From Lachnospiraceae bacterium (GTDB taxonomy: Bacteria > Bacillota > Clostridia > Lachnospirales > Lachnospiraceae), in contig JAMPGL010000034.1 in assembly GCA_023663945.1 (NCBI GenBank), forward strand, positions 1-44,909: a stretch of 44,909 nucleotides of DNA. Reading direction: 5' to 3'. The translations under genes were made by a program, and so were the position numbers. Shown piece after piece: positions 7,052 through 40,824 of this stretch. How positions within the stretch are numbered: position 1 is the stretch's first letter; each line of letters begins with the position of its first letter. Below the pieces are notes generated by a model that was not told the origin of the DNA, made no database searches, and saw only the letters and a program-made list of their open reading frames with translations.

Positions 7052-7975
7052 TTATTTTGCACTCAGCACAGATTGAATCCAATGGATTCTTCTCTGCATA
7101 GATTCTTCTAACATTTTGCTTTCAAGTGCCGTTTCAAATCCATGACATGCGCCTTTCACCTCGTGAAATTCCGCAGGAATGCCTTCTGAATGCAGTCTTT
7201 CCGCAAAGGAAATCCCCTCGTCGCGGAGGCAGTCGAACTCAGCCGCCTCAATATAAGTCTCCGGAAAATGTTTCAGCGATTCAGCCTCTATAGGCGATAC
7301 ATATTGAATCTGTTCAGGCATTTGCTTCCCTAAATATGCCTTCCAAAACATTTCTGTCCGCTTTGCGTCCCAGACGGGCGTGTCTGTAAACTTCTTCATT
7401 GATTCCGTTGCCATGCGCCTATCCAGAACAGGGTATATCAATAATGCCCCCAAAGGTGAAATCTGGATTCTGTCCCACAGCATCAGCGCAACCGCAGCTG
7501 CAAGATTCCCTCCGGCGCTGTCACCCGCCACAATTATTTTATCCTTATTAATCCCTAACCTGTCAGCAGAATTAAGCACCCATTCATAGGTGCAATAACA
7601 ATCTTCTACAGGAACAGGATACTTATATTTAGGTAATAATCTATAATCCGTAAAAATAACTTTACATTTTGCCATTTCCGCATACCACTTTGCAATCTGG
7701 TAATGCGCCTTTGATGCTTTAAGCAAAAGTCCTCCGCCGTGGTAAAATATAATACATGGGAGAATACTGCTGTATTCCTTTGGTTCAATGACAAAGGTCA
7801 AAAGTTTTCCGCCCTTATATCCGGGTGTCGCATATTTATTAACAATAACATTATCGCTTGATTCACATGTGGATAATTCCATTACCATATTCACGATTGA
7901 ATATAAATATATATTTGACGGTGCTTTCTGCTTTGCAATCCTTGCTAATTCACTGTCTATTTCGTACTTCATCAT
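7052..7975 (-). CDS. Alpha/beta hydrolase, hormone-sensitive-lipase type esterase
   Basis: 307 aa with all hallmarks of the HSL / bacterial esterase IV family: oxyanion-hole motif HGGG at residues 79-82, nucleophile Ser153 in GDSAGG, and the catalytic His in ACHGFE near residue 278, with an Asp (probably in EFDCLRDEG) about 30 residues before it. Probably hydrolyses short-chain acyl esters in the cytoplasm; no signal peptide. Single gene, convergent with the GNAT gene. Either of two adjacent ATG codons could be used. Confidence 0.85.
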   Translation of the reverse strand: MMKYEIDSELARIAKQKAPSNIYLYSIVNMVMELSTCESSDNVIVNKYATPGYKGGKLLTFVIEPKEYSSILPCIIFYHGGGLLLKASKAHYQIAKWYAEMAKCKVIFTDYRLLPKYKYPVPVEDCYCTYEWVLNSADRLGINKDKIIVAGDSAGGNLAAAVALMLWDRIQISPLGALLIYPVLDRRMATESMKKFTDTPVWDAKRTEMFWKAYLGKQMPEQIQYVSPIEAESLKHFPETYIEAAEFDCLRDEGISFAERLHSEGIPAEFHEVKGACHGFETALESKMLEESMQRRIHWIQSVLSAK

Positions 7976-8130
7976 GTCATCTTTCCCATTTAATTTAATA
8001 TTTAATTGTGCTTAAAGAGTTATAGTCAGCCTTTTCAATTGATGATTAATATGATACAACCATATTATAGCAGATTGCATAAAAAGTGCAAAGCCCGCTT
8101 ATAATTCAGAATCAATTTTTACAATTTAGG

Positions 8131-8162
8131 TTGACATTACGCATTTTTAGTAATACTATAAT
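8131..8162 (+). promoter_or_regulatory. Promoter of the CptI antitoxin RNA
   Basis: A perfect TTGACA at 8131-8136. Two overlapping -10 choices follow: TACTAT (17-base spacer, 8154-8159) or a perfect TATAAT (20-base spacer, 8157-8162). No start codon follows for about 200 bases, as expected for a promoter driving a non-coding antitoxin RNA. Confidence 0.55.
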
Positions 8163-8167
8163 AACGG

Positions 8168-8343
8168 AAGTAAAACTTCTGTTTGAAGCGTTTGTCAGAA
8201 GTGCTTGGCTTTATAATAGAATGTATCATTTGATGCTTTCTATTATATACAATAAAAACTGAAGAAATTGTGAGGGGTTCGTCAGATGTACCTGTCTAAA
8301 AAAAGCTGAAGAAATTATCGGGAACTAAATAGTTCCCGTTTTT
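8168..8343 (+). ncRNA. cptI: CptI-type antitoxin RNA (type III TA)
   Basis: Between a strong promoter and a terminator directly upstream of a CptN-like toxin gene, the position of type III antitoxin RNAs. The motif AAAA(A/G)CTGAAGAAATT occurs at 8254 and again at 8301, giving a unit of about 46 bases present once in full and once in part, the unit size reported for CptI. A separate hairpin lies upstream at about 8216-8246 (AATAGAA / TTCTATT). In this class the repeats are cut by the toxin and bind it as pseudoknots. Start and end are estimates. Confidence 0.65.
8319..8343 (+). terminator. Terminator between cptI and cptN
   Basis: CGGGAACT, loop AAAT, AGTTCCCG, then five T: a textbook rho-independent terminator. 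In type III modules a leaky terminator at this point sets the ratio of antitoxin RNA to toxin mRNA. Confidence 0.85.
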
Positions 8344-8358
8344 ACATTGAGGAGAATC

Positions 8359-8792
8359 ATGGAATTTATACTTTGTTACATAAAAAAAGCTATTTTGAAG
8401 CACACCAAGATTTCATAAAGATTTTAAATATTGGAGATGCAGACAAACAATCAAAAAGAACGCATTTATGTATTAAAATTATGTTAAACAAAAATGCTTT
8501 CTATATTCCATTACGAAATAATCTTGGTGCGGAAATAAGGAAATTTGGCAGAATTGGACATTCTGTTCCATCGGAAAAACGAAAGAATGCTGGTTTAGAT
8601 TTTCGTTATGCGCTGATAGTAAATGATTCAACTTATATTGAAGTACAAACAGAAAGAAAAATACCCGCTTCACAATATAGACGCATTCAAAGAGACTATC
8701 ATCTGATCCAATCCGAGTTTGAGGTCTATCTCAGAGGCTATAGTCAAATACCCCGTAGCAAGCTGACGGGGTATTTGACTTTCTCCCACTAA
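8359..8792 (+). pseudogene. cptN: CptN-like type III toxin endoribonuclease; frame needs -1 shift
   Basis: The body (KSYFEAHQDF, KRTHLCIKI, FYIPLRNN, FGRIGHSVPS, KNAGLDFRYALIVND, YIE) matches the CptN/ToxN/AbiQ RNase fold. The only start with a good ribosome binding site (GAGGAGAATC before the ATG at 8359) is out of frame with this body: zero-frame translation stops after 19 codons. The two frames meet at A AAA AAA (8382-8388), a classic -1 slippery heptamer. A -1 shift would give MEFILCYIKK then SYFEA, a sensible CptN N-terminus. So either one A was lost from the run (dead toxin) or slippage makes the toxin. The last about 16 codons lie in the hairpin repeat 8742-8780 and its flank. Confidence 0.75.
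8742..8780. repeat. GC-rich hairpin repeat, copy 2
   Basis: AGTCAAATACCCCG pairs perfectly over 14 bp with CGGGGTATTTGACT around the loop TAGCAAGCTGA. It is an inverted copy of the element at 22-53. It lies inside the 3' end of the cptN frame and marks the change from the AT-rich island to core genes. It could terminate transcription from both sides. Confidence 0.8.
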
Positions 8793-8815
8793 ATTAGCGC
8801 CCCCGAAAATCTGTT

Positions 8816-10192
8816 TTATATTTTAATCTGCGTCCATTTCCCCTTTTTAAAACGTGCAGAAGCAAACAAAAATCTTGAAACCTGATCCGCCAGTACTCCC
8901 AGCCAGATTCCCACAATGCCAAGCCCAAATACATATCCGCCCAGATAAGAGCCTGCGGTACGGATAAAGGTAACGCTGATAGTAGAGGCAGCCGCCGTAT
9001 AAAGCGTGTCCCCCGCGCCGCGCAGGCATCCCATGTATACTACCTGACTGATCTGAAAAGCAACCACAAAAATAATTACCCGCATGATACCCACGCCAAG
9101 ACTCACAATATGCGCCTCCTCAAAGAAAAGCCCCATCAGAGGTCTTGCTCCAAAAAAGTAAACCACCGCAAGACATACAGAAATCACACCGCCAAACATT
9201 CTACAGATACTTCCAAATTCCTTTGCCATCTTTTCATCTCCGGCTCCCAAACTTCGCCCAATCAGCGCTACCGCCGCCGCCTGCAGACCATCTCCAAAGG
9301 AAAAGGAAAGTCCCATAATGTTCATGCCTACCTGATGCGCCGCCATCGCATCCGTTCCCTGCTTTGCCGCCATGATTGCCGTCATCATAAATCCAATCCG
9401 CATCAAGATTTGTTCAAAGAAAACGCTGTATCCCACATGGATTAAATTGTACAGAGACTTGGCGGCAGGGCGTACCTTGTTTTTCAAAATATAAGGAATA
9501 CTGATAAAGCCGTCCGGCTTTAGGATTGATAAAATACTCATAATGCAGGCAACCACCGTCCCCAGAACCGTTGCCAGCGCCGCACCTTGTATGCCAAGAG
9601 CCGGAAATCCGAAATGTCCGTTAATCAGCAGATAATTACATATGATATTGACCGTATTGGAAGTAACATTGGTGCGCATTGTAATCTTGGTATTCCCCGC
9701 GCCTCTCTGGGCAGAATTAATCCCCATTTGAATGCAGTTAAAAATCATGCCTCCCATGATGATCCGAAAATAAGCCACTGCGCTGTCATGGGTTTCTGCC
9801 GTGGAACCGCACAGCCGGATAATAGGATTCGCCAACAGCACAAACAAAATACTCAAAGCCACCGCCGCTATAAGAATAAAAACAATAGCCGTGCTTAAGA
9901 TTCTGTTTGCCTCCTTCGGCTTTTCCTCCCCTCTCCGCCTTGCAACCAACGCTGAGATTGCCACATTTGCCGCAAAAAACAAAGACAGCCCCATAAACTT
10001 AGGCTGAGTCGTAAGCCCTACGGCGGCTACCGCGTAGGCGCCGAGCGAACTCACCATCAGCGAATCCACCAGCCCTGCAAACGCAACAAAAAAGGACTCC
10101 ACAATCGAGGGCCATGCCATATTGAAGGTAATGCGAATATTTTCACGGCTATGCTTCATTTGTTTCTTCTGAGATTTTATCTGTGTTTTCAT
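8816..10192 (-). CDS. MATE family efflux transporter
   Basis: 458 aa with about 12 hydrophobic segments in two homologous halves, as in MATE (multidrug and toxin extrusion) antiporters. Typical features are MAWPSIVESFFVAFAGLVDSL at the N-terminus, GINSAQRGAGNT in the first half and MGCLRGAGDT in the second. It probably exports cationic drugs or metabolites with Na+ or H+ antiport. AGGAAAG precedes the ATG. The promoter about 45 bases upstream carries a dyad, so a local repressor is likely. Confidence 0.9.
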   Translation of the reverse strand: MKTQIKSQKKQMKHSRENIRITFNMAWPSIVESFFVAFAGLVDSLMVSSLGAYAVAAVGLTTQPKFMGLSLFFAANVAISALVARRRGEEKPKEANRILSTAIVFILIAAVALSILFVLLANPIIRLCGSTAETHDSAVAYFRIIMGGMIFNCIQMGINSAQRGAGNTKITMRTNVTSNTVNIICNYLLINGHFGFPALGIQGAALATVLGTVVACIMSILSILKPDGFISIPYILKNKVRPAAKSLYNLIHVGYSVFFEQILMRIGFMMTAIMAAKQGTDAMAAHQVGMNIMGLSFSFGDGLQAAAVALIGRSLGAGDEKMAKEFGSICRMFGGVISVCLAVVYFFGARPLMGLFFEEAHIVSLGVGIMRVIIFVVAFQISQVVYMGCLRGAGDTLYTAAASTISVTFIRTAGSYLGGYVFGLGIVGIWLGVLADQVSRFLFASARFKKGKWTQIKI

Positions 10193-13054: not shown

Positions 13055-14230
13055 TTACGCAGAAAACAACTGCTTCAGCGCATCTTCCTTCAGTTCGGAA
13101 CCAATCACACAGAATTTTCCTGTCACGTCCGGCTTGCCTTCACGCACATTGCTCTCTCCCGGAACATAGTCAAAATAAATCCAGCCGCCGTCAACTCCGG
13201 GTACCATTCCTTTTGCCCGGAGGACAAAACCGTAGGTACCTTCTTTTTCCAGTTCATCCAAAATATTTTCCACATCGGATTTGCTGTACGCCTTGGGCGT
13301 CTCCATTCCCCAGCTGGTAAATACCTCGTCTGCGTGATGATGCCCATGCTCATGATCGTGACAGCCGCAGGTACACTCCGGTCCATGGTCGTGGTGATGA
13401 TGCTCGTGCTCATCCTCTTCATGATGGTGATGATGCTCATGCTCCTCGTCCTCATGATGGTGATGGTGCTCGTGCTCCTCGTCCTCATGATGATGATGGT
13501 GCTCATGCTCCTCGTCCTCATGATGATGATGGTGCTCGTGCTCCTCGTCCTCATGATGGTGATGATGGTGCTCATGCTCCTCATCTTCATGCCGATGCGC
13601 CCTAAGCTCCTCCATCAATTCCGCTTCCAAGTCCTTCGCACCTTCGATTGTTGCAAGAATGTCCTCTCCTTCAATCTGCTCCCAAGGAGTTGTGATAATC
13701 ACTGCCTTTTCATTGTGCTCCCGGATCAGTTCAATCGCCTTATTCAGTTTCTCCTCGGAAATATCTCCGGTACGGCTAAGAACTATTGTTCCTGCATATT
13801 CAATCTGATTGATAAAGAACTCTCCAAAGTTCTTGATATACATTTTACATTTAGACGCATCCACCACTGCCACCGCACTGTTAAGGACTACCTCTTTACT
13901 GTCGATCACATCCTGGACTGCCTTCATTACATCCGAAAGTTTACCGACTCCGGAGGGCTCGATTAAAATCCGCTCCGGTTCATAGGTATGCAGAACTTCC
14001 TTTAATGACGTTCCAAAATCACCAACCAGAGAACAGCAGATACAGCCGGAATTCATTTCCTTAATCTCAATTCCCGCTTCTTTCAAAAATCCGCCGTCAA
14101 TTCCGATTTCGCCAAATTCATTCTCAATCAAAACTACTTTGGTATCTGAGAGTGCCTCCGCGAGGAGCTTTTTAATCAGCGTCGTCTTTCCTGCGCCCAA
14201 AAATCCGGACACAATATCAATCTTTGTCAT
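13055..14230 (-). CDS. CobW/COG0523 metallochaperone GTPase with His-rich repeat
   Basis: 391 aa. P-loop GFLGAGKTT (about residues 9-17), the metal-binding GCICC motif (about 63-67), the SRTGD nucleotide motif and the C-terminal CobW_C domain (about 310-391) are all present. Between them sits a Glu/Asp/His-rich insert (about residues 215-300) with six near-identical units and a final Cys/His cluster (CTCGCHDHEHGHHH). Such GTPases pass Zn, Ni or Co to target enzymes; the insert should store or buffer metal. A strong promoter lies upstream and the second GTPase follows, so the pair form an operon. Confidence 0.9.
   Translation of the reverse strand: MTKIDIVSGFLGAGKTTLIKKLLAEALSDTKVVLIENEFGEIGIDGGFLKEAGIEIKEMNSGCICCSLVGDFGTSLKEVLHTYEPERILIEPSGVGKLSDVMKAVQDVIDSKEVVLNSAVAVVDASKCKMYIKNFGEFFINQIEYAGTIVLSRTGDISEEKLNKAIELIREHNEKAVIITTPWEQIEGEDILATIEGAKDLEAELMEELRAHRHEDEEHEHHHHHHEDEEHEHHHHHEDEEHEHHHHHEDEEHEHHHHHEDEEHEHHHHHEEDEHEHHHHDHGPECTCGCHDHEHGHHHADEVFTSWGMETPKAYSKSDVENILDELEKEGTYGFVLRAKGMVPGVDGGWIYFDYVPGESNVREGKPDVTGKFCVIGSELKEDALKQLFSA
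13391..13588 (-). repeat. In-gene His-codon tandem repeat (33-bp unit)
   Basis: Six consecutive units of EDEEHEHHHHH type: one of 36 bp, four of 33 bp and one degenerate of 30 bp. All lengths are multiples of three, so copy number can change without breaking the GTPase frame. Confidence 0.9.
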
Positions 14231-22873: not shown

Positions 22874-22972
22874 TCAACTTTTTTTAATAAAATCCGGATG
22901 AATCGGAATTTCCACTGTCACAGCCCGTCTGCCATCATCTGTAAAGAATCTTGACTCTGAATATGCATTCAT
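22874..22972 (-). CDS. 32-aa ORF overlapping the end of hsdR
   Basis: The ATG overlaps the hsdR stop (ATGA), so translation could continue from hsdR. The product MNAYSESRFFTDDGRRAVTV... ends HPDFIKKS. It contains an ordered pattern (FTDDGRRAVTVEIPIHPDF) unlike random sequence. No family recognised. It could be a tiny accessory protein or the start of a longer gene cut at the island edge. Confidence 0.45.
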   Translation of the reverse strand: MNAYSESRFFTDDGRRAVTVEIPIHPDFIKKS

Positions 22973-25900
22973 CGGTTTCTTAAATCTATATATGCTTCCT
23001 TTGCAATAGATTCCATGACAGATTTATAAAAAGCCTTATCTTCAAACAACTTGGAAAATGCCTTCATCTGCTCCATGTAACACTCTTGGGCTACCTGTTT
23101 AAAAATTTCTGGAAAAATGGAGCGGTTAAATACTTCTTCATCATTTTTCTTTGCCTGCATTTTGATTTTTTCATTGTACTTCACGCATCTGTTATAAAGC
23201 TGTTCTACCATTACCCTGTCGCTCTCGATAAATATTCCTTGATATTTTTCATTTATTTTACCTATAATAACATCCAGTAATTCATCCTCGTCAGTGCCTT
23301 TTCCAGATGTTTTCAGAGTCTTCGGATTCACTAATGTAGAAGTTTCTACCGTTGGATTCAAAGAAATATCTCCCTTAAATGTCTGCTCTAACTTATAAAA
23401 CTCTAATCTCAGCTTATCCTCCAAATCCACTGATTTTGCATCCACCGCCGGTGGCAGCATCTTTTCCAAATACTGCGTAAAGTTAAATTCCTTCTGCAAT
23501 GATATATCAAACATTCTGGAAATTTGAGTAACATAGGAGTACCATTTATTAAAATTATGGATTATTTTCTTATAATCAAATCTCTTGTCTTCCGACAGTG
23601 CTTTATACCTGTTCACAATAGGAGTCAGCACACCTGCCATTCTGCCTAAATCAGTGTCGTTCTGCGGAGACTTTTTAAAGAGGATTTTCAACAGCTTCTC
23701 TATATCATCATCATTGTATAAACCATAACTTCTAAGCATAGTTCTAGTGTCATAAATCAAATTAACATTGATTTCCTGATCCAGTTCCGTGCACTCAAAA
23801 TATGGCTCAAATGCTTCCTTAATTTCATCCGCTGTATTCACAAAATCCAAAACAAAAGTGTCTGTTTTCCCTGCACAGGTTCTGTTAAGTCTCGATAAAG
23901 TCTGCACTGCTTTCACGCCTTTCAGCTTCTTATCAACAAACATGGTATGCAACAGAGGCTCGTCAAAACCTGTCTGATATTTTTCCGCAACAATTAACAT
24001 CGAATACTCATCTTTATTAAATTCAGCAGGCAACTGAGTATATTTGATGGTTGTGCCATCTTTTCTTTTGTTCAGACCTTCCTCTGTATACTCTTCTTCC
24101 CCATCTTTAACAATTCCCGAAAAAGCGACTAAAATTTCAAGATCATCATAGCCTTTCAATTCCAAATATCTTTTAAACTCATGGTAGTATCTGATGGCAT
24201 GTAATCTTGATGCAGTTACTACCATTGCTTTCGCATTGCCGTTAATCTTATTCTTTGTAACACTTCTGAATGTCTCAATGATGATTGCCGTTTTCTGCTG
24301 CAGATTATGCGGATGCAGAGATTCATACCTTTGGATTGCTTTTAGTGCTTGTGAAGCGGGGACTTCGGGATTCCCTGGGGTATTCTTTGCAATCTTATAG
24401 CAGTTCTTGTATGTCATATAATTTTTCAGCACATCAAGGATAAAGCCTTCTTCAATCGCCTGCTTCATACTGTAAATATGAAACGCCTTGAATTTACCAT
24501 TAGGCAGTTTTTCTCCAAACAATTCCAATGTTGATTCTTTCGGCGTGGCAGTAAAGGCAAAGAAAGAGAGATTTTTGTGCTTACCATGCGTAAGCATCTG
24601 CTCAACAATTCTGTCCTCATCATCTTTAATTTGTTCTTCCTCTTTCCCTTCAATTTCCGCAAATTCTTTTAATGCTTCCTCTGTATCAGCAAGAGCAGCT
24701 TTCAATTTTTGAGCAGATCTGCCTGACTGTGAATTATGGGCTTCATCCACAATAACCGCAAACCTTTTATCTGTTGTATCTTTGACTTCTTCATAGATAT
24801 GTGGAAACTTTTGCAATGTGGTAATAATAATCTTCTTTCCATCATTTATAGCATCCCTCAAATCAGAAGAATGTTTTTCATCATCTATCTTCTCAACAGT
24901 ACCCTTAATATGGTCAAAGCCAAAGATTGTATTTTGCGTCTGCCTGTCCAGAACAGTCCTGTCATTTATAACAATCACGGAAGTAAAAACAGGCTTGTCA
25001 TCTTTATCGTGCAGCTCTGACAATTCGTAAGCCAGCCACGCAATCGAATTGCTCTTGCCCGATCCCGCGCTGTGCTGAATCAGGTAATTCTTTCCAGACC
25101 CATTCTCTTTCACATCCGCAATCAATTTTGCGACAACATCCAGTTGGTGGTATCTTGGGAAAATAAGTTTAAGGCTTTTCTTCTTTATTTCTGCCCCATT
25201 TTTATAGACAACCTTTTCTTCTTCCACTCTCTGGATAAATTTATGTATCAGTTCAAGCAGGCTGTCTTTTGTGAGTACCTTTTCCCAAAGATAAGAGGTA
25301 GTATAGCCATCTGGATTCTCTGGATTGCCAGCCCCGCCGACTTCACCTGCCCCGTTAGAGCCTTGGTTAAACGGAAGGAAAAATGTCTCTTTCCCTGCTA
25401 ATCTGGTTGTCATTGCAACTTCGTTCAGGTCAACCGCAAAATAAACCAGAAATCTTTTGTCAAACTGAAAACATAATTCTCTTGGATTCCTGTCATACAT
25501 AAACTGCTTCTTGGCGTTGGCGATAGATTGTCCTGTCAACTGGTTTTTCAATTCCAATGCCACTACAGGAATGCCGTTTACGGAAAGAACCATGTCAATA
25601 CTGTTTTCATTCTGAATGGAGTATTTAAACTGTCTCGTGCAGGTCACAATGTTGCTGTTGTAATCATCAATGACCTGCTGGCTTAAGCTGTTATTTTCTT
25701 TAAAAGCGACAATTTCAATCTTCGCCCCTCTGTCCTCAAACCCATGCCTCAATACATGCAGAAGCCCGAAAATATCAACACTTTCCTGAAATCTTTTATA
25801 AAATTTCTTTTCTGCATCTGCTCCATAATTTCTCTCGTATTTCTGCCACTGCTTAGGCTGTGTTTTCTTTACAAACGCGGTCAGCCTTGGCAGATCGATT

Positions 25901-26004
25901 GCTTTTTCTCTGTCATAGGTTGTTTGATTGTCTTTTAAAAAGCCGCCCCTCGAGAGCATATAACTTTCGATATCCTGTTCAAAACGCTTTTCCTTTGTGT
26001 CCAT
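22969..26004 (-). CDS. hsdR: Type I restriction enzyme R subunit
   Basis: 1011 aa, normal for HsdR. The N-terminal PD-(D/E)xK nuclease has its Asp near 137 and ELK at 151-153. The SF2 translocase follows: Walker A SAGSGKS at about 312-318, DEAH at 420-423, FTATP motif III, then the QTGFDEP and LSRLNR helicase motifs. The C-terminal helical part should bind HsdM/HsdS. It pumps unmethylated DNA and cuts it. It is separated from hsdM-hsdS by ORF255 and a decayed gene, about 550 bases from ORF255, so it may use readthrough or its own promoter. Confidence 0.95.
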   Translation of the reverse strand: MDTKEKRFEQDIESYMLSRGGFLKDNQTTYDREKAIDLPRLTAFVKKTQPKQWQKYERNYGADAEKKFYKRFQESVDIFGLLHVLRHGFEDRGAKIEIVAFKENNSLSQQVIDDYNSNIVTCTRQFKYSIQNENSIDMVLSVNGIPVVALELKNQLTGQSIANAKKQFMYDRNPRELCFQFDKRFLVYFAVDLNEVAMTTRLAGKETFFLPFNQGSNGAGEVGGAGNPENPDGYTTSYLWEKVLTKDSLLELIHKFIQRVEEEKVVYKNGAEIKKKSLKLIFPRYHQLDVVAKLIADVKENGSGKNYLIQHSAGSGKSNSIAWLAYELSELHDKDDKPVFTSVIVINDRTVLDRQTQNTIFGFDHIKGTVEKIDDEKHSSDLRDAINDGKKIIITTLQKFPHIYEEVKDTTDKRFAVIVDEAHNSQSGRSAQKLKAALADTEEALKEFAEIEGKEEEQIKDDEDRIVEQMLTHGKHKNLSFFAFTATPKESTLELFGEKLPNGKFKAFHIYSMKQAIEEGFILDVLKNYMTYKNCYKIAKNTPGNPEVPASQALKAIQRYESLHPHNLQQKTAIIIETFRSVTKNKINGNAKAMVVTASRLHAIRYYHEFKRYLELKGYDDLEILVAFSGIVKDGEEEYTEEGLNKRKDGTTIKYTQLPAEFNKDEYSMLIVAEKYQTGFDEPLLHTMFVDKKLKGVKAVQTLSRLNRTCAGKTDTFVLDFVNTADEIKEAFEPYFECTELDQEINVNLIYDTRTMLRSYGLYNDDDIEKLLKILFKKSPQNDTDLGRMAGVLTPIVNRYKALSEDKRFDYKKIIHNFNKWYSYVTQISRMFDISLQKEFNFTQYLEKMLPPAVDAKSVDLEDKLRLEFYKLEQTFKGDISLNPTVETSTLVNPKTLKTSGKGTDEDELLDVIIGKINEKYQGIFIESDRVMVEQLYNRCVKYNEKIKMQAKKNDEEVFNRSIFPEIFKQVAQECYMEQMKAFSKLFEDKAFYKSVMESIAKEAYIDLRNR

Positions 26005-26044
26005 AAATTAGTTCATCCTTATTCTAATTATTTTGACATCGGCG

Positions 26045-26545
26045 TCACAATTCTATAAATTCATATTTTCCTGGACCCAGTCCTACTACTTTTCTAATAA
26101 CTTTCGATCTTCTCATCTCTTTCATAAGAATACCTGCTTTCGCTTTAGAACACTGTAGCCATTCCATCACATTCGCCTGTCCAAAAGAAACGCCTAAACC
26201 ACACTTGGTAAATACCTGCTCTATATTCCCTCTATTTTTTTCAGTAACCTCTGCCTCTATGAATAGCGGAATATATTTTTTAAATGTGATGCCTTCTTTT
26301 TTCGTGTCATTGCCTATTTTTTGGGGGGCATTGCCTATTTTTTCTGTAGCATTGCCTATTTTTTTTGGGCATTGCCTATTTTTTCTGTAGCATTGCCTAT
26401 TTTTCTAAAAAGAACAGCAATAAAGCCATCCCCATATTCTTCAAAAACCGGTTCCGATAATCCATATTCCTTACATCTGCTAATAATCCTTACACTATTA
26501 TACCCTTTTCTTCTTTATCATGCACTCATAAACAACTATCTTGAA
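26045..26545 (-). pseudogene. C-terminal remnant of ATP-binding (AlbA_2-type) regulator
   Basis: The first fragment reads RIISRCKEYGLSEPVFEEYGDGFIAVLF, typical of the end of the HATPase_c_4/AlbA_2 domain of Schlafen-like ATP-binding regulators. After a repeat with A-runs that shift the frame, a winged-helix end follows (CGLGVSFGQANVMEWLQCSKAKAGILM ... GPGKYEFIEL). The N-terminal 300 or so residues are gone. It sits between ORF255 and hsdR, where intact members of this family occur in some type I loci. Non-functional as it stands. Confidence 0.65.
26308..26410. repeat. About 21-bp tandem repeat, five units
   Basis: Five units starting CATTGCCTATTTTTT with 20-21 base periods, two of them identical with the tail CTGTAG. 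In the minus strand frame they encode KIGNATE-like repeats of the decayed regulator. Poly-A/T runs of variable length within units break the frame. Confidence 0.85.
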
Positions 26546-26549
26546 AACA

Positions 26550-27317
26550 TCAATTATCTTCACCCCAATTTCTTTTTAAAAAGTCATTCACATCCCCACT
26601 ATTATGCAGACCTAAATAACTATTATGTATTACTTCTTTATCATGTGTCCAAATAAATTTTTTAGGCGAATCTTTTTGCAAAACACGCAAATATTGATCT
26701 AATGTTTCCAGTGCTTCCTTAGCAAAAACGTCTAAAACCTTTAAAACTTTATAAATATTCTCATCCGTATTTTCTATATTTTTCAACTGGTTAATTTCCA
26801 TTTCTGTAAATGCAATGTCAAAATATATATACTCATCCATTCTATTTTTTAAATGTATATATTTATCTCTTATAAAATTGTTATGAGCCAACATAAATTT
26901 ATCCTTTTTCCTAAACACACAATAATCTGTATTAACCATCCACAAAAGTCTATTTTGCATAGCTGGTAATCTGCTTGTAAACAAGTTTTTAGGAATTTTC
27001 GTATCTCTATCAAAAATCAGTTCATTAATATTTTTATGTATATAATAAAAATCGCTATATAAGGTTATCGCAGCATTATACAAATATTTTTTTAATCTGT
27101 TTTTATCTAAATAATAATTATAGCTTTTATCTGCAAGCACTGCTACAAGACCCGCGCAGACTCCGCTGCACAATGCCAGTATCATACTATTTGAGAATAA
27201 AACTGAATTTAATATTATTATCCCTGTTTCAGCATTAATGTTCACAAGACATGTTGCTATAAGAAATATAACAGCTATCCATGTCAGCCATTTTATAATT
27301 TTAACATTTACACTCAT
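26550..27317 (-). CDS. ORF255: two-TM protein coupled to hsdS, unknown
   Basis: 255 aa. Two hydrophobic segments lie at about residues 8-27 (IKWLTWIAVIFLIATCLVNI) and 36-62 (ILNSVLFSNSMILALCSGVCAGL). A cytoplasmic domain of about 190 residues follows, mostly helical and charged, ending HNSGDVNDFLKRNWGEDN. The ATG overlaps the hsdS stop (ATGA), so it is translated from the hsd transcript. The architecture (short N-terminus, TM hairpin, helical soluble domain) is like membrane effectors of defence systems, but no family is recognised and no catalytic motif is visible. It could be an abortive-infection type backup linked to the restriction system. Confidence 0.75.
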   Translation of the reverse strand: MSVNVKIIKWLTWIAVIFLIATCLVNINAETGIIILNSVLFSNSMILALCSGVCAGLVAVLADKSYNYYLDKNRLKKYLYNAAITLYSDFYYIHKNINELIFDRDTKIPKNLFTSRLPAMQNRLLWMVNTDYCVFRKKDKFMLAHNNFIRDKYIHLKNRMDEYIYFDIAFTEMEINQLKNIENTDENIYKVLKVLDVFAKEALETLDQYLRVLQKDSPKKFIWTHDKEVIHNSYLGLHNSGDVNDFLKRNWGEDN

Positions 27318-28642
27318 CGTAATCCTATCTCCTGCTCTATCTCTTTCTTTCCGGTAACATACTCATAAATCAGTGATTTTTTATAACTTTCCAAATCAGC
27401 AAGCAGTTCTTCTTTCTTTGCAATCAACTTATCGATTTCAGAACATTTTTCATCAAGGTATCTTGCAATTTTTTTCTGTTCTTTTAAAGGAGGAAGCAAT
27501 ACAGGCAGCTTTTTCAATAACTCTTGGCTCAACGAAGCTCTTGTTACAAGGTTCATTTCTTTTACAAAAAATTTTCTATGTATATCACTTCTAAAATAAT
27601 ATTTAGAAAATTCAGGCAGTAGTTCTTCCTGATTATTTGGTCTAAATCTAATAACAAATCCTGCAAATGTAGCATCATAAATGGTTTTTAGGCAAGTTGA
27701 TGCAAAACCTACTTCTTCGATTGTTTCCGATGTTCTGGTAAAAAAAACATCTCCATATTGAACAGAATATATCTTCCTATCATCTTCACTGGATTTAATT
27801 AGCCCTGACCCCTTTTCTGGCAATGTATAATTTTTATATACATCTCCATAACTTACAAAAGGATACCCTTCTCCAAAATACTCTGATGACTTACTTATTC
27901 CATTTTGGCACATACCCAAAAATCTTAATCTTTTTTCAACCCAATGTGCAGGAAATACTCCAAGATATCTGTTTTTACTTTCTTTCATTTCTACATCAGT
28001 ATTCAGTCCCTTTGTTACGGCATCAGTAATAATCACCTGTTTATATTTCTTATAGTCTTCAATAGTTTCTTTTGTCTTTACAATAACAAAATCAATTTCT
28101 CTAACTCTTTTATCAAGAAAGTTTAAAATTTTTTTTATTTCATCTTGTGAAGGTGGTATTGAAATAAAATAATTATTTATATTTTCTGTTGATATATTAG
28201 GTTGTGCTGAACCAGCAGCTAAAAGATTGATATATTTTAAAAACTCATCTGTACTTAAATAATAAAATATGTATCTGCTAATTTGACTTCTAATAATTCC
28301 TACTCGTTGATTAATATAACATTTATCAGACATTTGAATTACATATCCCAGCTTACCAACAGTTGCCCCACTCATTGCAATAATTACATCATTATCCTTT
28401 ATAATATATTTCTCTAATGTATTGTCATTATAATCAATTTTATTTGCTTGTTTAGCATTAATAGTTCCATCTGCAATATCACCAATCCTTATTACACTAT
28501 ATTTTCCAGTACTTTTCAAACTATTGCTATCAAACGCATATCCGTTTATAAACTCCATCTTATTTTTAATTTTTGTCACTTCCCACTCCGCAGGAATCTC
28601 CCCAATCCATTCCACCCCAGAATCTTTCATCTGCCTTGCCAT
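27314..28642 (-). CDS. hsdS: Type I restriction-modification specificity subunit
   Basis: 442 aa. Two target-recognition domains (about residues 1-170 and 215-390), each starting with the family phrase (KDSGVEWIGEIPAEWEV; LGVFPAHWVEKRLRF), and two helical spacers (FLDKRVREIDFVIVKTKETIEDYKKYKQ; YLDEKCSEIDKLIAKKEELLADLESYKKS) that set the gap between half-sites. The ATG shares its A with the hsdM stop (TGATG) and has AAGGGGG upstream. It gives DNA specificity to both modification and restriction. No second hsdS or invertase was seen. Confidence 0.93.
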   Translation of the reverse strand: MARQMKDSGVEWIGEIPAEWEVTKIKNKMEFINGYAFDSNSLKSTGKYSVIRIGDIADGTINAKQANKIDYNDNTLEKYIIKDNDVIIAMSGATVGKLGYVIQMSDKCYINQRVGIIRSQISRYIFYYLSTDEFLKYINLLAAGSAQPNISTENINNYFISIPPSQDEIKKILNFLDKRVREIDFVIVKTKETIEDYKKYKQVIITDAVTKGLNTDVEMKESKNRYLGVFPAHWVEKRLRFLGMCQNGISKSSEYFGEGYPFVSYGDVYKNYTLPEKGSGLIKSSEDDRKIYSVQYGDVFFTRTSETIEEVGFASTCLKTIYDATFAGFVIRFRPNNQEELLPEFSKYYFRSDIHRKFFVKEMNLVTRASLSQELLKKLPVLLPPLKEQKKIARYLDEKCSEIDKLIAKKEELLADLESYKKSLIYEYVTGKKEIEQEIGLR

Positions 28643-30414
28643 CACTCATTGCCCCCTTTGCCAAACAGTTTCTCCAAAGAGGCCATAATTTCCTTTTCAT
28701 GCTCTGTAATTCTCTCCGCAATCACTTCCGCTTTTTCTGGTGCTTCATACTTATAGAAATATCTTGTAAAAGGAATCTCATATCCAACCTTCGTTTTCGA
28801 TTTCTCTATCCATGCTTCGGGATTATAAGGTTTTACTTCCCTCTCAAAATAACTGTCAATATCCTCTGTCAGCGGAACGTTCTCAAAATCTCTTTTTGAG
28901 GCATCTGCCACAGGCTGATTTTTCTTGCCCTTTGTAATCAGCTTTCCAGCTTCATCATAAGAGGGACTTTCAATCTGGATTCTGTTGAAACCAAAATCTT
29001 CATTGTTAAAAATCTTGCTTTCACAAACTTTACCGTCTAATTCATAAGTTTTGTTTTGAAATTCCCCGTAAGCAGTAACAATCACTTCCCTGCATTCCTC
29101 TGTAATATCATTCCTTTTACTGCCGATATTCTTTCTTCTGGATACAACCATCTTGGAAGCGTCAATAAGCTGTACTTTCCCCTGCCTTTCTTCTGACTTA
29201 TTTTTGGAAATGATCCAAATATAGGTAGTGATGCCAGTATTATAAAATACGTCTGTTGACAACTGCACAATCGCATCCAGCCAGTCATTTTCAATCATGT
29301 ATCTCCTGATTTCGGATTCTCCCGATTCAGCCGCGCCAGTAAACAGAGAAGAACCATTATGGATAATCGCCATCCTCCCATCGTCTTTCAGCTTTGCAAT
29401 TCCATTTAAGTCAAAAAGCATCTGCCCGTCACTAATTTTAGGAAGACCAACAGAAAATCTCCCCATATCTCCAAGCTTTGCTTCCGCTTCCACTGCATTC
29501 TTTTCCACCTTCCATTCAATGCCAAAGGGCGGATTGCTGATAATATAATCAAAGGTATAGCCCTTGAATTTATCATCTGATAAAGTGTTTCCCTGTCTCA
29601 TGTTGTCGCTGTTACCGCCACGAATCAGCATATCAGCTTTTGCAATAGCAAATGTTTCAGGATTCAATTCCTGTCCAAATACTTTCACATCCGCTTCTGC
29701 ATCCAGTTCAAGAAGTCTCTCCGTCATGCAGGTAAGCATCTGGCTTGTACCCATAGTCATATCGTAAACAGTCTTCGCAACACCTTCCTCTATCATGGTG
29801 TCTTTATCTTCCGAAATCAGCAAATCTGTCATAAGGTAAATAATATCTCTCGATGTAAAATGCGCTCCTGCCTGTTCATCGTAGGACTCTGAAAATCTGC
29901 GGACCAAATCTTCAAAGATGTAACCCATGTCAACTGCGGTAATCTTATCTGCTCCCATATAAGCCGATGGTTTATTAAATGCTTCAATAATCAGGAACAG
30001 CATCCCATTATTGGCAAGTTTGGTAATCTCCCTGTCAAATTCAAAATTTTCAATAATGTCCTGCACATTATCAGAAAAACCATTCAGATATTCCCTGAAA
30101 TTTTTCTCAATATGTGTGGCATCATTGCATAACTTTTGAAAATCGAATGGACTGGTATTATAAAACTTATACCCTGATGCAGTTTCCAAAAATCCATCAA
30201 TTACTTCCAAATGCTTTACTTTATCATAAGTGTCCCAAACGCTCTGCCTTGTCGGTGCAAGAACATCATTAAATCTTTTAATTACACACATAGGGAGAAT
30301 CACTTTTCCATATTCGTGGGGTTTATAATATTCCCGAATCAAATCTGCAATAGACCATATAAGATTGGATTTTTCCTGTATATTCGTTGTAGTTTGATTA
30401 TGTAAATCTGTCAT
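28642..30414 (-). CDS. hsdM: Type I restriction-modification DNA methyltransferase subunit
   Basis: 590 aa from the ATG at 30414 (AGGAG nine bases upstream; a GTG two codons earlier is too close). Has the N-terminal helical HsdM domain, the SAM-binding motif in TMGTSQML, FGQELNPETFAIAKADMLIRG, and the catalytic NPPF of N6-adenine methyltransferases (ISNPPFGIEWK). It protects host sites in complex with HsdS. First gene of the hsd operon, behind a good promoter. Confidence 0.95.
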   Translation of the reverse strand: MTDLHNQTTTNIQEKSNLIWSIADLIREYYKPHEYGKVILPMCVIKRFNDVLAPTRQSVWDTYDKVKHLEVIDGFLETASGYKFYNTSPFDFQKLCNDATHIEKNFREYLNGFSDNVQDIIENFEFDREITKLANNGMLFLIIEAFNKPSAYMGADKITAVDMGYIFEDLVRRFSESYDEQAGAHFTSRDIIYLMTDLLISEDKDTMIEEGVAKTVYDMTMGTSQMLTCMTERLLELDAEADVKVFGQELNPETFAIAKADMLIRGGNSDNMRQGNTLSDDKFKGYTFDYIISNPPFGIEWKVEKNAVEAEAKLGDMGRFSVGLPKISDGQMLFDLNGIAKLKDDGRMAIIHNGSSLFTGAAESGESEIRRYMIENDWLDAIVQLSTDVFYNTGITTYIWIISKNKSEERQGKVQLIDASKMVVSRRKNIGSKRNDITEECREVIVTAYGEFQNKTYELDGKVCESKIFNNEDFGFNRIQIESPSYDEAGKLITKGKKNQPVADASKRDFENVPLTEDIDSYFEREVKPYNPEAWIEKSKTKVGYEIPFTRYFYKYEAPEKAEVIAERITEHEKEIMASLEKLFGKGGNE

Positions 30415-30492
30415 TTTCACTTTCTCCTTATTATTCTCTATCTTTTCTATAACTCTGTTATTTTTACAAAAATCATTATAATTCTACTTCCC

Positions 30493-31222: not shown

Positions 31223-31498
31223 ACACTCTGTTTCACAACTTTCTTTCGCTTACGCTAGATGGATTATGGTAAGTTGCCACCTTTGTGAGCCTCCATGTTC
31301 ACCGCTTTCCATCACGGCTCCCACTTCAACGGCGAAAGCATTTGATGAGTCTGCTTCTCAAGAAGTTTCCTTCTGCTATTATAGTATTCTATTTATATTA
31401 GAAAGTCAAACGAAATTTACGCGCTTTCCATATTTTCCTATATTCCCTCTCACTTTTTTAATAAAAAAATAAACGGGTGTGAAAACATCCACTTTAAT
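31223..31498. other. Unexplained stretch, possibly a decayed element or structured RNA
   Basis: No supported gene. On the minus strand, about 31255-31360, a frame reads SSNAFAVEVGAVMESGEHGG then WQLTIIHLA before a stop, but it lacks a start. The same segment is denser in G and C than its surroundings (31,260-31,380) and ends at the terminator at 31184-31222, so a non-coding RNA is equally possible. Downstream of the 105-aa gene, at 31475-31490, a short GGGTGT / ACATCC hairpin is present. Confidence 0.35.
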
Positions 31499-40164: not shown

Positions 40165-40205
40165 TTTTAAATCCTCCTTAATTTTATGGTCATGCCACTT
40201 ATAAT

Positions 40206-40235
40206 AGTATATCTTATTTTGTCGTCTGTTGTCTA
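40206..40235 (-). promoter_or_regulatory. Promoter of the SPFH-pcrA operon
   Basis: On the minus strand TAGACA, 18-base spacer, TATACT, about 40 bases before the SPFH ATG. Confidence 0.5.
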
Positions 40236-40344
40236 TAAAAACTACTCACAGGGACTTGCTACTTTCTACAAATTTTCACATAGGATAAATCAATACATGC
40301 CGACTAAGCTCAAACAGCCGGTTTCATCCTATTTGGAGGTTCTT

Positions 40345-40824
40345 ATGAAAAAAATATTAAAAAAACCCCTGGCACTGCTCCTTACCGCTCTTCTTGTCAT
40401 GGGCGTTCTGGCAGGATGCGGTAACAAGGCTGATTCAAAAGGCGGAAACAAAGATTCCTTAACGCCCGTAACCTTGAACGAGGTTGCTCACTCCATCTTC
40501 TACGCTCCCATGTATGTGGCAATTGAAGAGGGATATTTTGCAGAAGAGGGAATTGACCTGACACTGGTAACCGGATTTGGCGCCGACAAAACCATGACCG
40601 CCGTGCTCACTGACGAAGCGGACATTGGCTTTATGGGAAGCGAATCCACCATTTATACCTATGCAGGAGGCACGCAGGATTATGTAGTCAATTTTGCACA
40701 ATTAACCCAGCGTGCCGGAAATTTCCTGGTATCCCGTCAGCCAATTGACAATTTTTCCTGGGATATGCTGAAAGGTTCCACCGTTCTTGGAGGCCGGGCA
40801 GGTGGATGGCACGGCACTATGTAA
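40345..40824 (+). pseudogene. ABC transporter substrate-binding protein (NMT1/THI5-like), truncated
   Basis: GGAGG precedes the ATG. The lipoprotein signal peptide is clear (KKILKKPLALLLTALLVMGVLAGCG, lipobox LAGC). The first lobe follows: VTLNEVAHSIFYAPMYVAIEEGYFAEEGIDL, the start of the SsuA/THI5 family, to LKGSTVLGGRAGG. It then ends abruptly in WHGTM, after 159 of about 330 residues. The convergent DUF2804 gene ends one base away, so a deletion probably removed the rest of the gene and its ABC partners. It may still be secreted but cannot form a complete binding protein. Confidence 0.85.

What the first reader, a model, noticed from the sequence alone, without database searches (positions are those of the whole stretch)
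8359..8400. Type III toxin cptN can only be read through a -1 shift at an A AAA AAA heptamer
Seen: the only well-placed start (ATG 8359, GAGGAG upstream) is out of frame with the conserved CptN body, and the frames meet exactly at A AAA AAA (8382-8388) read as ATA AAA AAA. A -1 slip yields MEFILCYIKK-SYFEA, a credible N-terminus. Known: A AAA AAA/AAG heptamers support -1 frameshifting and poly-A runs cause transcriptional slippage. Inference: the toxin is either inactivated by loss of one A, or made only at a low slippage level or in phase-variable manner, adding a control layer to a type III TA system.
Basis: partly seen in the sequence, partly recalled or inferred. Interest (0 to 1): 0.72.

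Follow-up and report, generated by a model that had tools for sequence, protein, structure and literature searches.

The report
Decayed type III toxin-antitoxin remnant
This looks like a broken leftover of a bacterial toxin-antitoxin module, damaged near both ends of the toxin gene, so the run of A's is better read as one of its lesions than as a control switch.

Summary
The frame break is real. ATG 8359 lies 4 nt behind GAGGAG (8349-8354) and is out of frame with the toxin body; the frames can meet at seven A's, 8382-8388.

The body is not CptN by any test run here. Its only named family match is TenpIN, below the curated cut-off; three intact relatives also fall below it.

Six close intact relatives (two nearly identical) stay in one frame through this site, with no A run longer than four there. 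The RNA downstream shows no structure beyond chance.

After codon 8739-8741 the frame runs into a palindrome (8742-8780) with two near-copies elsewhere in the genome. The C-terminus with its SSLINF motif was not found elsewhere in it. A -1 slip would still give a protein lacking that end.

The antitoxin keeps two pseudoknot repeats and a terminator, but repeat 1 carries a 40-nt hairpin insert that six relatives lack.

Verdict: a decayed TenpIN-like type III module, not programmed frameshifting or phase variation. Raw reads were not available. Interest is low.

The parts
8131..8159 (+). promoter-like site TTGACA-17-TACTAT before the antitoxin
   Evidence: 10 of 12 consensus bases; but 5 promoter-like sites were found in 8050-8830 against 3.3 (sd 1.7) in shuffles, so it is a consensus match only
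8185..8270 (+). antitoxin repeat 1, with a 40-nt hairpin insert
8211..8250 (+). hairpin insert in repeat 1 (arms 8212-8228 and 8231-8247), absent from the repeat 1 of six relatives
   Evidence: its 34-nt core has no other match in the own genome with up to 3 mismatches
8272..8317 (+). antitoxin repeat 2
   Evidence: 44 of 45 bases as in L006 and in L060, 42 of 45 in L005, 37 of 45 in L002
8319..8343 (+). intrinsic-terminator-like hairpin and T run between antitoxin and toxin
   Evidence: 2 strand readings of one hairpin found; 0.3, sd 0.7, in shuffles
8349..8354 (+). Shine-Dalgarno-like GAGGAG
8359..8418 (+). original start frame, 19 codons, corresponding to the N-terminus of the relatives
8382..8388 (+). 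run of seven A's where the two frames can meet
8373..8792 (+). open frame of the toxin body from TTG 8373; alike to relatives to 8741, unrelated tail after that
8742..8780 (.). palindromic repeat that replaces the 3' end of the toxin gene
   Evidence: 15-nt arms, 100% complementary; fold z -6.00 for 8735-8790; two near-copies elsewhere in the genome

Best explanation
A chromosomal type III toxin-antitoxin module of TenpIN-like kind (RNA antitoxin of two pseudoknot repeats, terminator, endoribonuclease toxin gene) has decayed. The original toxin start is still present, but a frame break at an A-rich spot ends translation after 19 codons. Separately, the 3' end of the gene is missing from a genome-specific palindromic repeat onward, so that about 30 C-terminal residues are lost. 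Repeat 1 of the antitoxin carries a hairpin insert. No active toxin is expected; the antitoxin RNA may still be made. Shown: both breaks, the intact relatives, the repeat structure. Inferred: loss of activity, and the order and cause of the lesions.
For: Six of six close relatives stay in one frame and end with SSLINF. The window frame departs from them after 8741 and enters a palindrome with two near-copies in the genome, all three copies starting at the base corresponding to 8742. The relative's residues 132-157 match nowhere in the genome at E up to 1. L and F of the C-terminal motif stand in 9 of 9 intact proteins of a wider alignment. No RNA structure beyond chance after the A run (z 0.01). 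Interrupted or split TenpIN matches also occur in G007, G009 and G028 of the 37 genus genomes. The repeats covary as an H-type pseudoknot.
Against: The body is open for 117 codons without a stop and shows past constraint (pN/pS 0.31 to 0.38 against three relatives; among the relatives 0.13 to 0.46), so the decay is recent or the remnant has some use. Repeat 2 and the terminator are well kept. No reads and no second strain of the species were seen. The own genome is 94% complete in 107 contigs, so absence of the missing 3' end is not proven. No activity was tested.
Confidence: 0.88

Rival explanations
1. Programmed -1 ribosomal frameshifting or transcriptional slippage at A AAA AAA makes a low level of toxin.
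For: The heptamer stands in the right phase and a shift there would enter the body frame; the body is open.
Against: Six of six close relatives have no such run and need no shift; no downstream structure beyond chance (z 0.01); GAGGAG is 27 nt upstream of the run; [quoted passage not shown] coli (PMC5009743); the product would lack its C-terminus.
Confidence: 0.02
2. Phase variation: the A tract changes length and switches the toxin on and off.
For: A homopolymer lies exactly at the frame break.
Against: Seven A's are a short tract and runs of seven or more A or T are common in the window (19); the 3' break would keep the toxin incomplete in either phase. Tract variation itself was not testable.
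Confidence: 0.02
3. The break at the A run is a sequencing or assembly error.
For: Homopolymers are error-prone; no reads were available to check.
Against: It would not explain the 3' break or the insert in repeat 1, which lie apart from the run. It is compatible with a gene that is broken at the 3' end only.
Confidence: 0.05
4. A shorter protein from TTG 8373 is made and has a function of its own.
For: Open frame of 139 codons; past constraint on the body.
Against: GAGGAG lies 18 nt upstream of TTG; the product would lack the conserved N-terminal residues and the C-terminal motif.
Confidence: 0.03

Closest known systems
TenpIN family of type III toxin-antitoxin systems (NCBIfam NF047358; described with ToxIN and CptIN in the review PMC5086642, passages seen)
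   Same: Toxin body is alike (57.7 bits); RNA repeats upstream, terminator between antitoxin and toxin, same gene order.
   Different: Below the curated cut-off of 90, as are three intact relatives at 76.8 to 80.5, so this is a divergent branch; toxin broken at two places; insert in repeat 1.
CptIN family (E. rectale CptIN, PDB 4RMO, PMC4627078, passages seen)
   Same: Same general type: RNA repeats of about 45 nt that form H-type pseudoknots, and a ribonuclease toxin.
   Different: No CptN or other type III toxin was listed in three PDB sequence searches up to E 1 or 10; I do not know whether NCBIfam holds a CptIN model.
Programmed -1 frameshift cassettes such as E. coli dnaX (PMC5009743, passages seen)
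   Same: An A-rich heptamer in the X XXY YYZ phase.
   Different: No downstream structure beyond chance, GAGGAG 27 nt away, no conservation in relatives.

Membership tests
TenpIN | toxin scores above the curated model cut-off (90 bits) | tested here: not met
   57.7 bits; three intact relatives 76.8 to 80.5, also below
TenpIN | tandem repeats upstream that form a pseudoknot antitoxin | tested here: met
   two repeats; 88.9% of cells paired, 5 of 9 pairs with changes on both sides, 0 of 500 shuffles as high; one pair fails in 6 of 10 rows and 'further pair types' is not above shuffles, 454 of 500
TenpIN | terminator between antitoxin and toxin | tested here: met
   8319-8343
TenpIN | intact toxin gene | tested here: not met
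   frame break at 8382-8388 and 3' end lost from 8742
TenpIN | toxicity neutralised by the RNA | not testable with these tools
   bench work needed
CptIN | sequence similarity of the toxin to CptN | tested here: inconclusive
   no type III toxin listed in PDB sequence searches, but the families share little sequence and no CptN model was run
programmed -1 frameshift | slippery heptamer in phase | tested here: met
programmed -1 frameshift | site conserved in relatives | tested here: not met
   0 of 6 close relatives has an A run longer than four at the site
programmed -1 frameshift | stimulatory downstream RNA structure | tested here: not met
   z 0.01 for 8389-8460, 94 of 200 shuffles fold at least as well; a pseudoknot was not modelled
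phase variation | tract length varies between strains or within a population | not testable with these tools
   no reads; no second strain seen in the collections searched

The most novel reading that the evidence does not exclude
The toxin is dead but the RNA antitoxin is kept in use: repeat 2 (44 of 45 bases as in L006 and L060, while synonymous sites of the toxin gene are near saturation against L006, pS 0.75) and the terminator remain, so the RNA may protect the cell against incoming TenpN-like toxins as an RNA anti-addiction module, with the hairpin insert in repeat 1 as a tolerated or tuned variant.
Probability: 0.05. Interest if true: 0.5.

Novelty: new member of a known kind. Interest (0 to 1): 0.12.

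Why it matters
Little in itself: it replaces a proposed extra control layer (frameshift or phase-variable control of a type III toxin) by gene decay. It would matter if the surviving antitoxin RNA still neutralises related toxins, since a type III antitoxin without its toxin would be a clean test of anti-addiction by RNA.

Tried and rejected
CptN identity was dropped because TenpIN is the only named family hit. For the window body, Pfam gave nothing, PADLOC nothing, and PHROGs gave phrog_8049 of unknown function. For three intact relatives, Pfam gave only matches below its cut-offs, among them ToxN_toxin for L005 at E 0.18. Rfam at gathering scores listed nothing at the antitoxin.

Search for an empty site. 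At the MATE flank, none of 19 genus loci (the best 19 outside the own genome; L015 to L033) matches beyond window 8806 towards the module; in G010 and G030 (MATE 96% identical) the neighbouring DNA does not match the window. At the hydrolase flank, the best match (G003) ends at 7975, the start of that gene. So the borders of the module were not found.

A structure model of the intact relative L005 (alignment of 2 rows) had mean pLDDT 37.2; it was not used and no fold search was run.

Other strains and orphan copies: exact-pattern and relative searches of viral contigs gave no relative. Repeat 2 with up to 3 mismatches was found in 2 of 397 family genomes, the window's and G187, the latter beside an intact toxin, so no second orphan antitoxin was seen.

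Literature: listings for type III toxin-antitoxin with pseudogene or frameshift terms (10 of 525 shown, none of the ten holding the type III term), toxin-antitoxin with programmed frameshifting and slippery (2 of 2), CptIN with frameshift (3 of 3), toxin-antitoxin with phase variation (8 of 57 shown) and anti-addiction (8 of 28 shown) showed no title on frameshift-controlled type III toxins. A proposed -1 frameshift for MazF translation is in PMC8749433 (passages). The library lacks most subscription papers, so this is weak evidence of absence.

Rows not in the count of 6 close relatives: the more distant matches L003, L008, L009, L011 to L013, L034, L036 to L038, L040, L062, L065, L066, L068, L078 are open over the domain, but their starts were not compared with the window's; two of them (L062, L065) have Y for the F of the C-terminal motif. 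L035 and L064: my filters found no frame. L063: no ATG near the start of the domain. L041: N-terminus not alike. L039 and L042: interrupted. L004, L067, L069 to L077 were not examined further beyond their match rows or were partial.

Full report
Observation. The frame from ATG 8359 (GAGGAG 8349-8354, 4 nt before it) reads 19 codons and stops at 8416-8418. The toxin-like body lies in the -1 frame, and the two frames can meet at seven A's, 8382-8388, read ATA AAA AAA. The body frame has a start of its own, TTG 8373. Runs of seven or more A or T occur 19 times in the window (8 A, 11 T), so an A7 by itself is ordinary.

Identity. The body matches one named family only, NCBIfam TenpIN (NF047358), at 57.7 bits with a cut-off of 90. 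Three intact relatives score 76.8 to 80.5 and are also below the cut-off. Pfam and PADLOC gave no match for the window body. PDB sequence searches with the body, with an intact relative and with a profile of five relatives listed no type III toxin. I call it TenpIN-like and do not file it as a member of the curated family.

Relatives. With the body as query, 4 of 37 genus genomes and 5 of 397 family genomes had a match, the own genome counted in both. One named relative was found in genome contigs (L005, an Agathobacter sp. MAG, 68%) and one phage-like faecal record (L010); 28 plasmid records, 27 of them Listeria, had weaker matches. A profile of intact relatives found 18 of 392 order genomes, again with the own genome. 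Six close relatives (L002, L005, L006, L007, L010, L060) begin at an ATG at or within one codon of the place of ATG 8359, stay in one frame through the site, where their longest A run is 2 to 4, and hold the motif SSLINF near the end. L007 and L010 are nearly the same sequence, so these are about five independent cases.

Second break. The window's frame is alike to the relatives up to YLRGY (last codon 8739-8741) and then reads SQIPRSKLTGYLTFSH. That tail is coded by a palindrome, 8742-8780 (15-nt arms, 100% complementary; fold z -6.00 for 8735-8790), and the few bases after it. The palindrome has two near-copies in this genome, with 0 matches for the reversed control pattern. In all three copies the shared sequence starts at the base corresponding to 8742; on the right side the other two copies go on differently. 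The relative's residues 132-157 match nowhere in the genome at E up to 1; the genome is 94% complete in 107 contigs, so this is not proof of loss. L and F of the motif stand in 9 of 9 intact proteins of a wider alignment; two still more distant relatives have Y for F. So whatever happens at the A run, the product would lack its C-terminus.

Antitoxin. Upstream lie a promoter-like site (8131-8159; such sites are not more frequent here than in shuffles), two repeats, and a terminator (8319-8343). In 12 repeats (10 distinct) from six loci, an H-type pseudoknot of 5 and 4 pairs has 88.9% of cells paired and 5 of 9 pairs with changes on both sides; none of 500 shuffles reached these values or the covariation score, and slid versions had at most 53.3% paired. 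Against this: one pair (columns 6 and 20) fails in 6 of 10 rows, the alignment shifts the second stem of L007 and L010 by one base, 'further pair types' was not above shuffles (454 of 500), and I drew the structure by eye from these same sequences. Repeat 1 of the window holds a 40-nt hairpin insert (8211-8250) that is absent from repeat 1 of the five other loci in the alignment and of L060, and its 34-nt core has no other match in the genome. Repeat 2 is identical in 44 of 45 bases to L006 and to L060, 42 of 45 to L005 and 37 of 45 to L002.

Frameshift mechanism. RNA 8389-8460 folds as its shuffles do (z 0.01); pseudoknots were not modelled. GAGGAG ends 27 nt upstream of the run. [quoted passage not shown] coli (PMC5009743).

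Selection. pN/pS of the shared 117 codons is 0.31 (L005), 0.32 (L006) and 0.38 (L002) against the window; among the relatives it is 0.13 (L005-L006), 0.42 (L005-L002) and 0.46 (L006-L002). This shows past constraint; it does not tell present function, because synonymous sites are near saturation.

Decay is common nearby. Of 37 genus genomes, 13 have a TenpIN match (own included) and 8 are over the cut-off; besides the window, G007, G009 and G028 hold matches that are interrupted by stops or split over frames. One of G009's interrupted matches is itself over the cut-off, so 8 is not a count of intact genes.

Verdict. A TenpIN-like type III module with two separate lesions in the toxin gene and an insert in the antitoxin: a remnant, most likely without toxin activity (0.88). 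Programmed frameshifting and phase variation are not supported (0.02 each). Raw reads were not available, but an error at the A run alone would leave the 3' break. The open question is whether the antitoxin RNA is still made and useful (novel case, 0.05).

Noticed in passing
window 8211-8250: A 40-nt hairpin insert within antitoxin repeat 1; no other match of its core in the genome and absent in six relatives.
   Followed up: partly
window 8742-8780; L052 and L053 near position 1507: A palindromic repeat with two near-copies in the genome, which there go on into a longer composite element (CCTCGCGGCAGTCGTCAA...) that the window copy lacks.
   Followed up: partly
L006 838-882, L060, window 8272-8316: Antitoxin repeat 2 is almost identical (44 of 45) between loci of different taxonomic families while the toxin genes have diverged far.
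   Followed up: partly
G007:C6, G009:C12, G009:C36, G028:C4: Other TenpIN matches in the genus that are interrupted by stops or split over frames.
   Followed up: no
window 13055-14230 (-): A 391-codon frame with several copies of a repeat rich in His and Asp/Glu (EDEEHEHHHHH); by eye like a CobW-type metal GTPase (recalled, not tested).
   Followed up: no
window 31231-31334 (-): A drum RNA (Rfam RF02958, 49.4 bits, gathering score 43), close to what looks by eye like a type I restriction-modification set at 22969-30420.
   Followed up: no
window 40186-40824 (+): A 212-codon frame that looks by eye like the front part of a substrate-binding lipoprotein and ends just before a convergent gene; possibly another truncated gene (not tested).
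   Followed up: no
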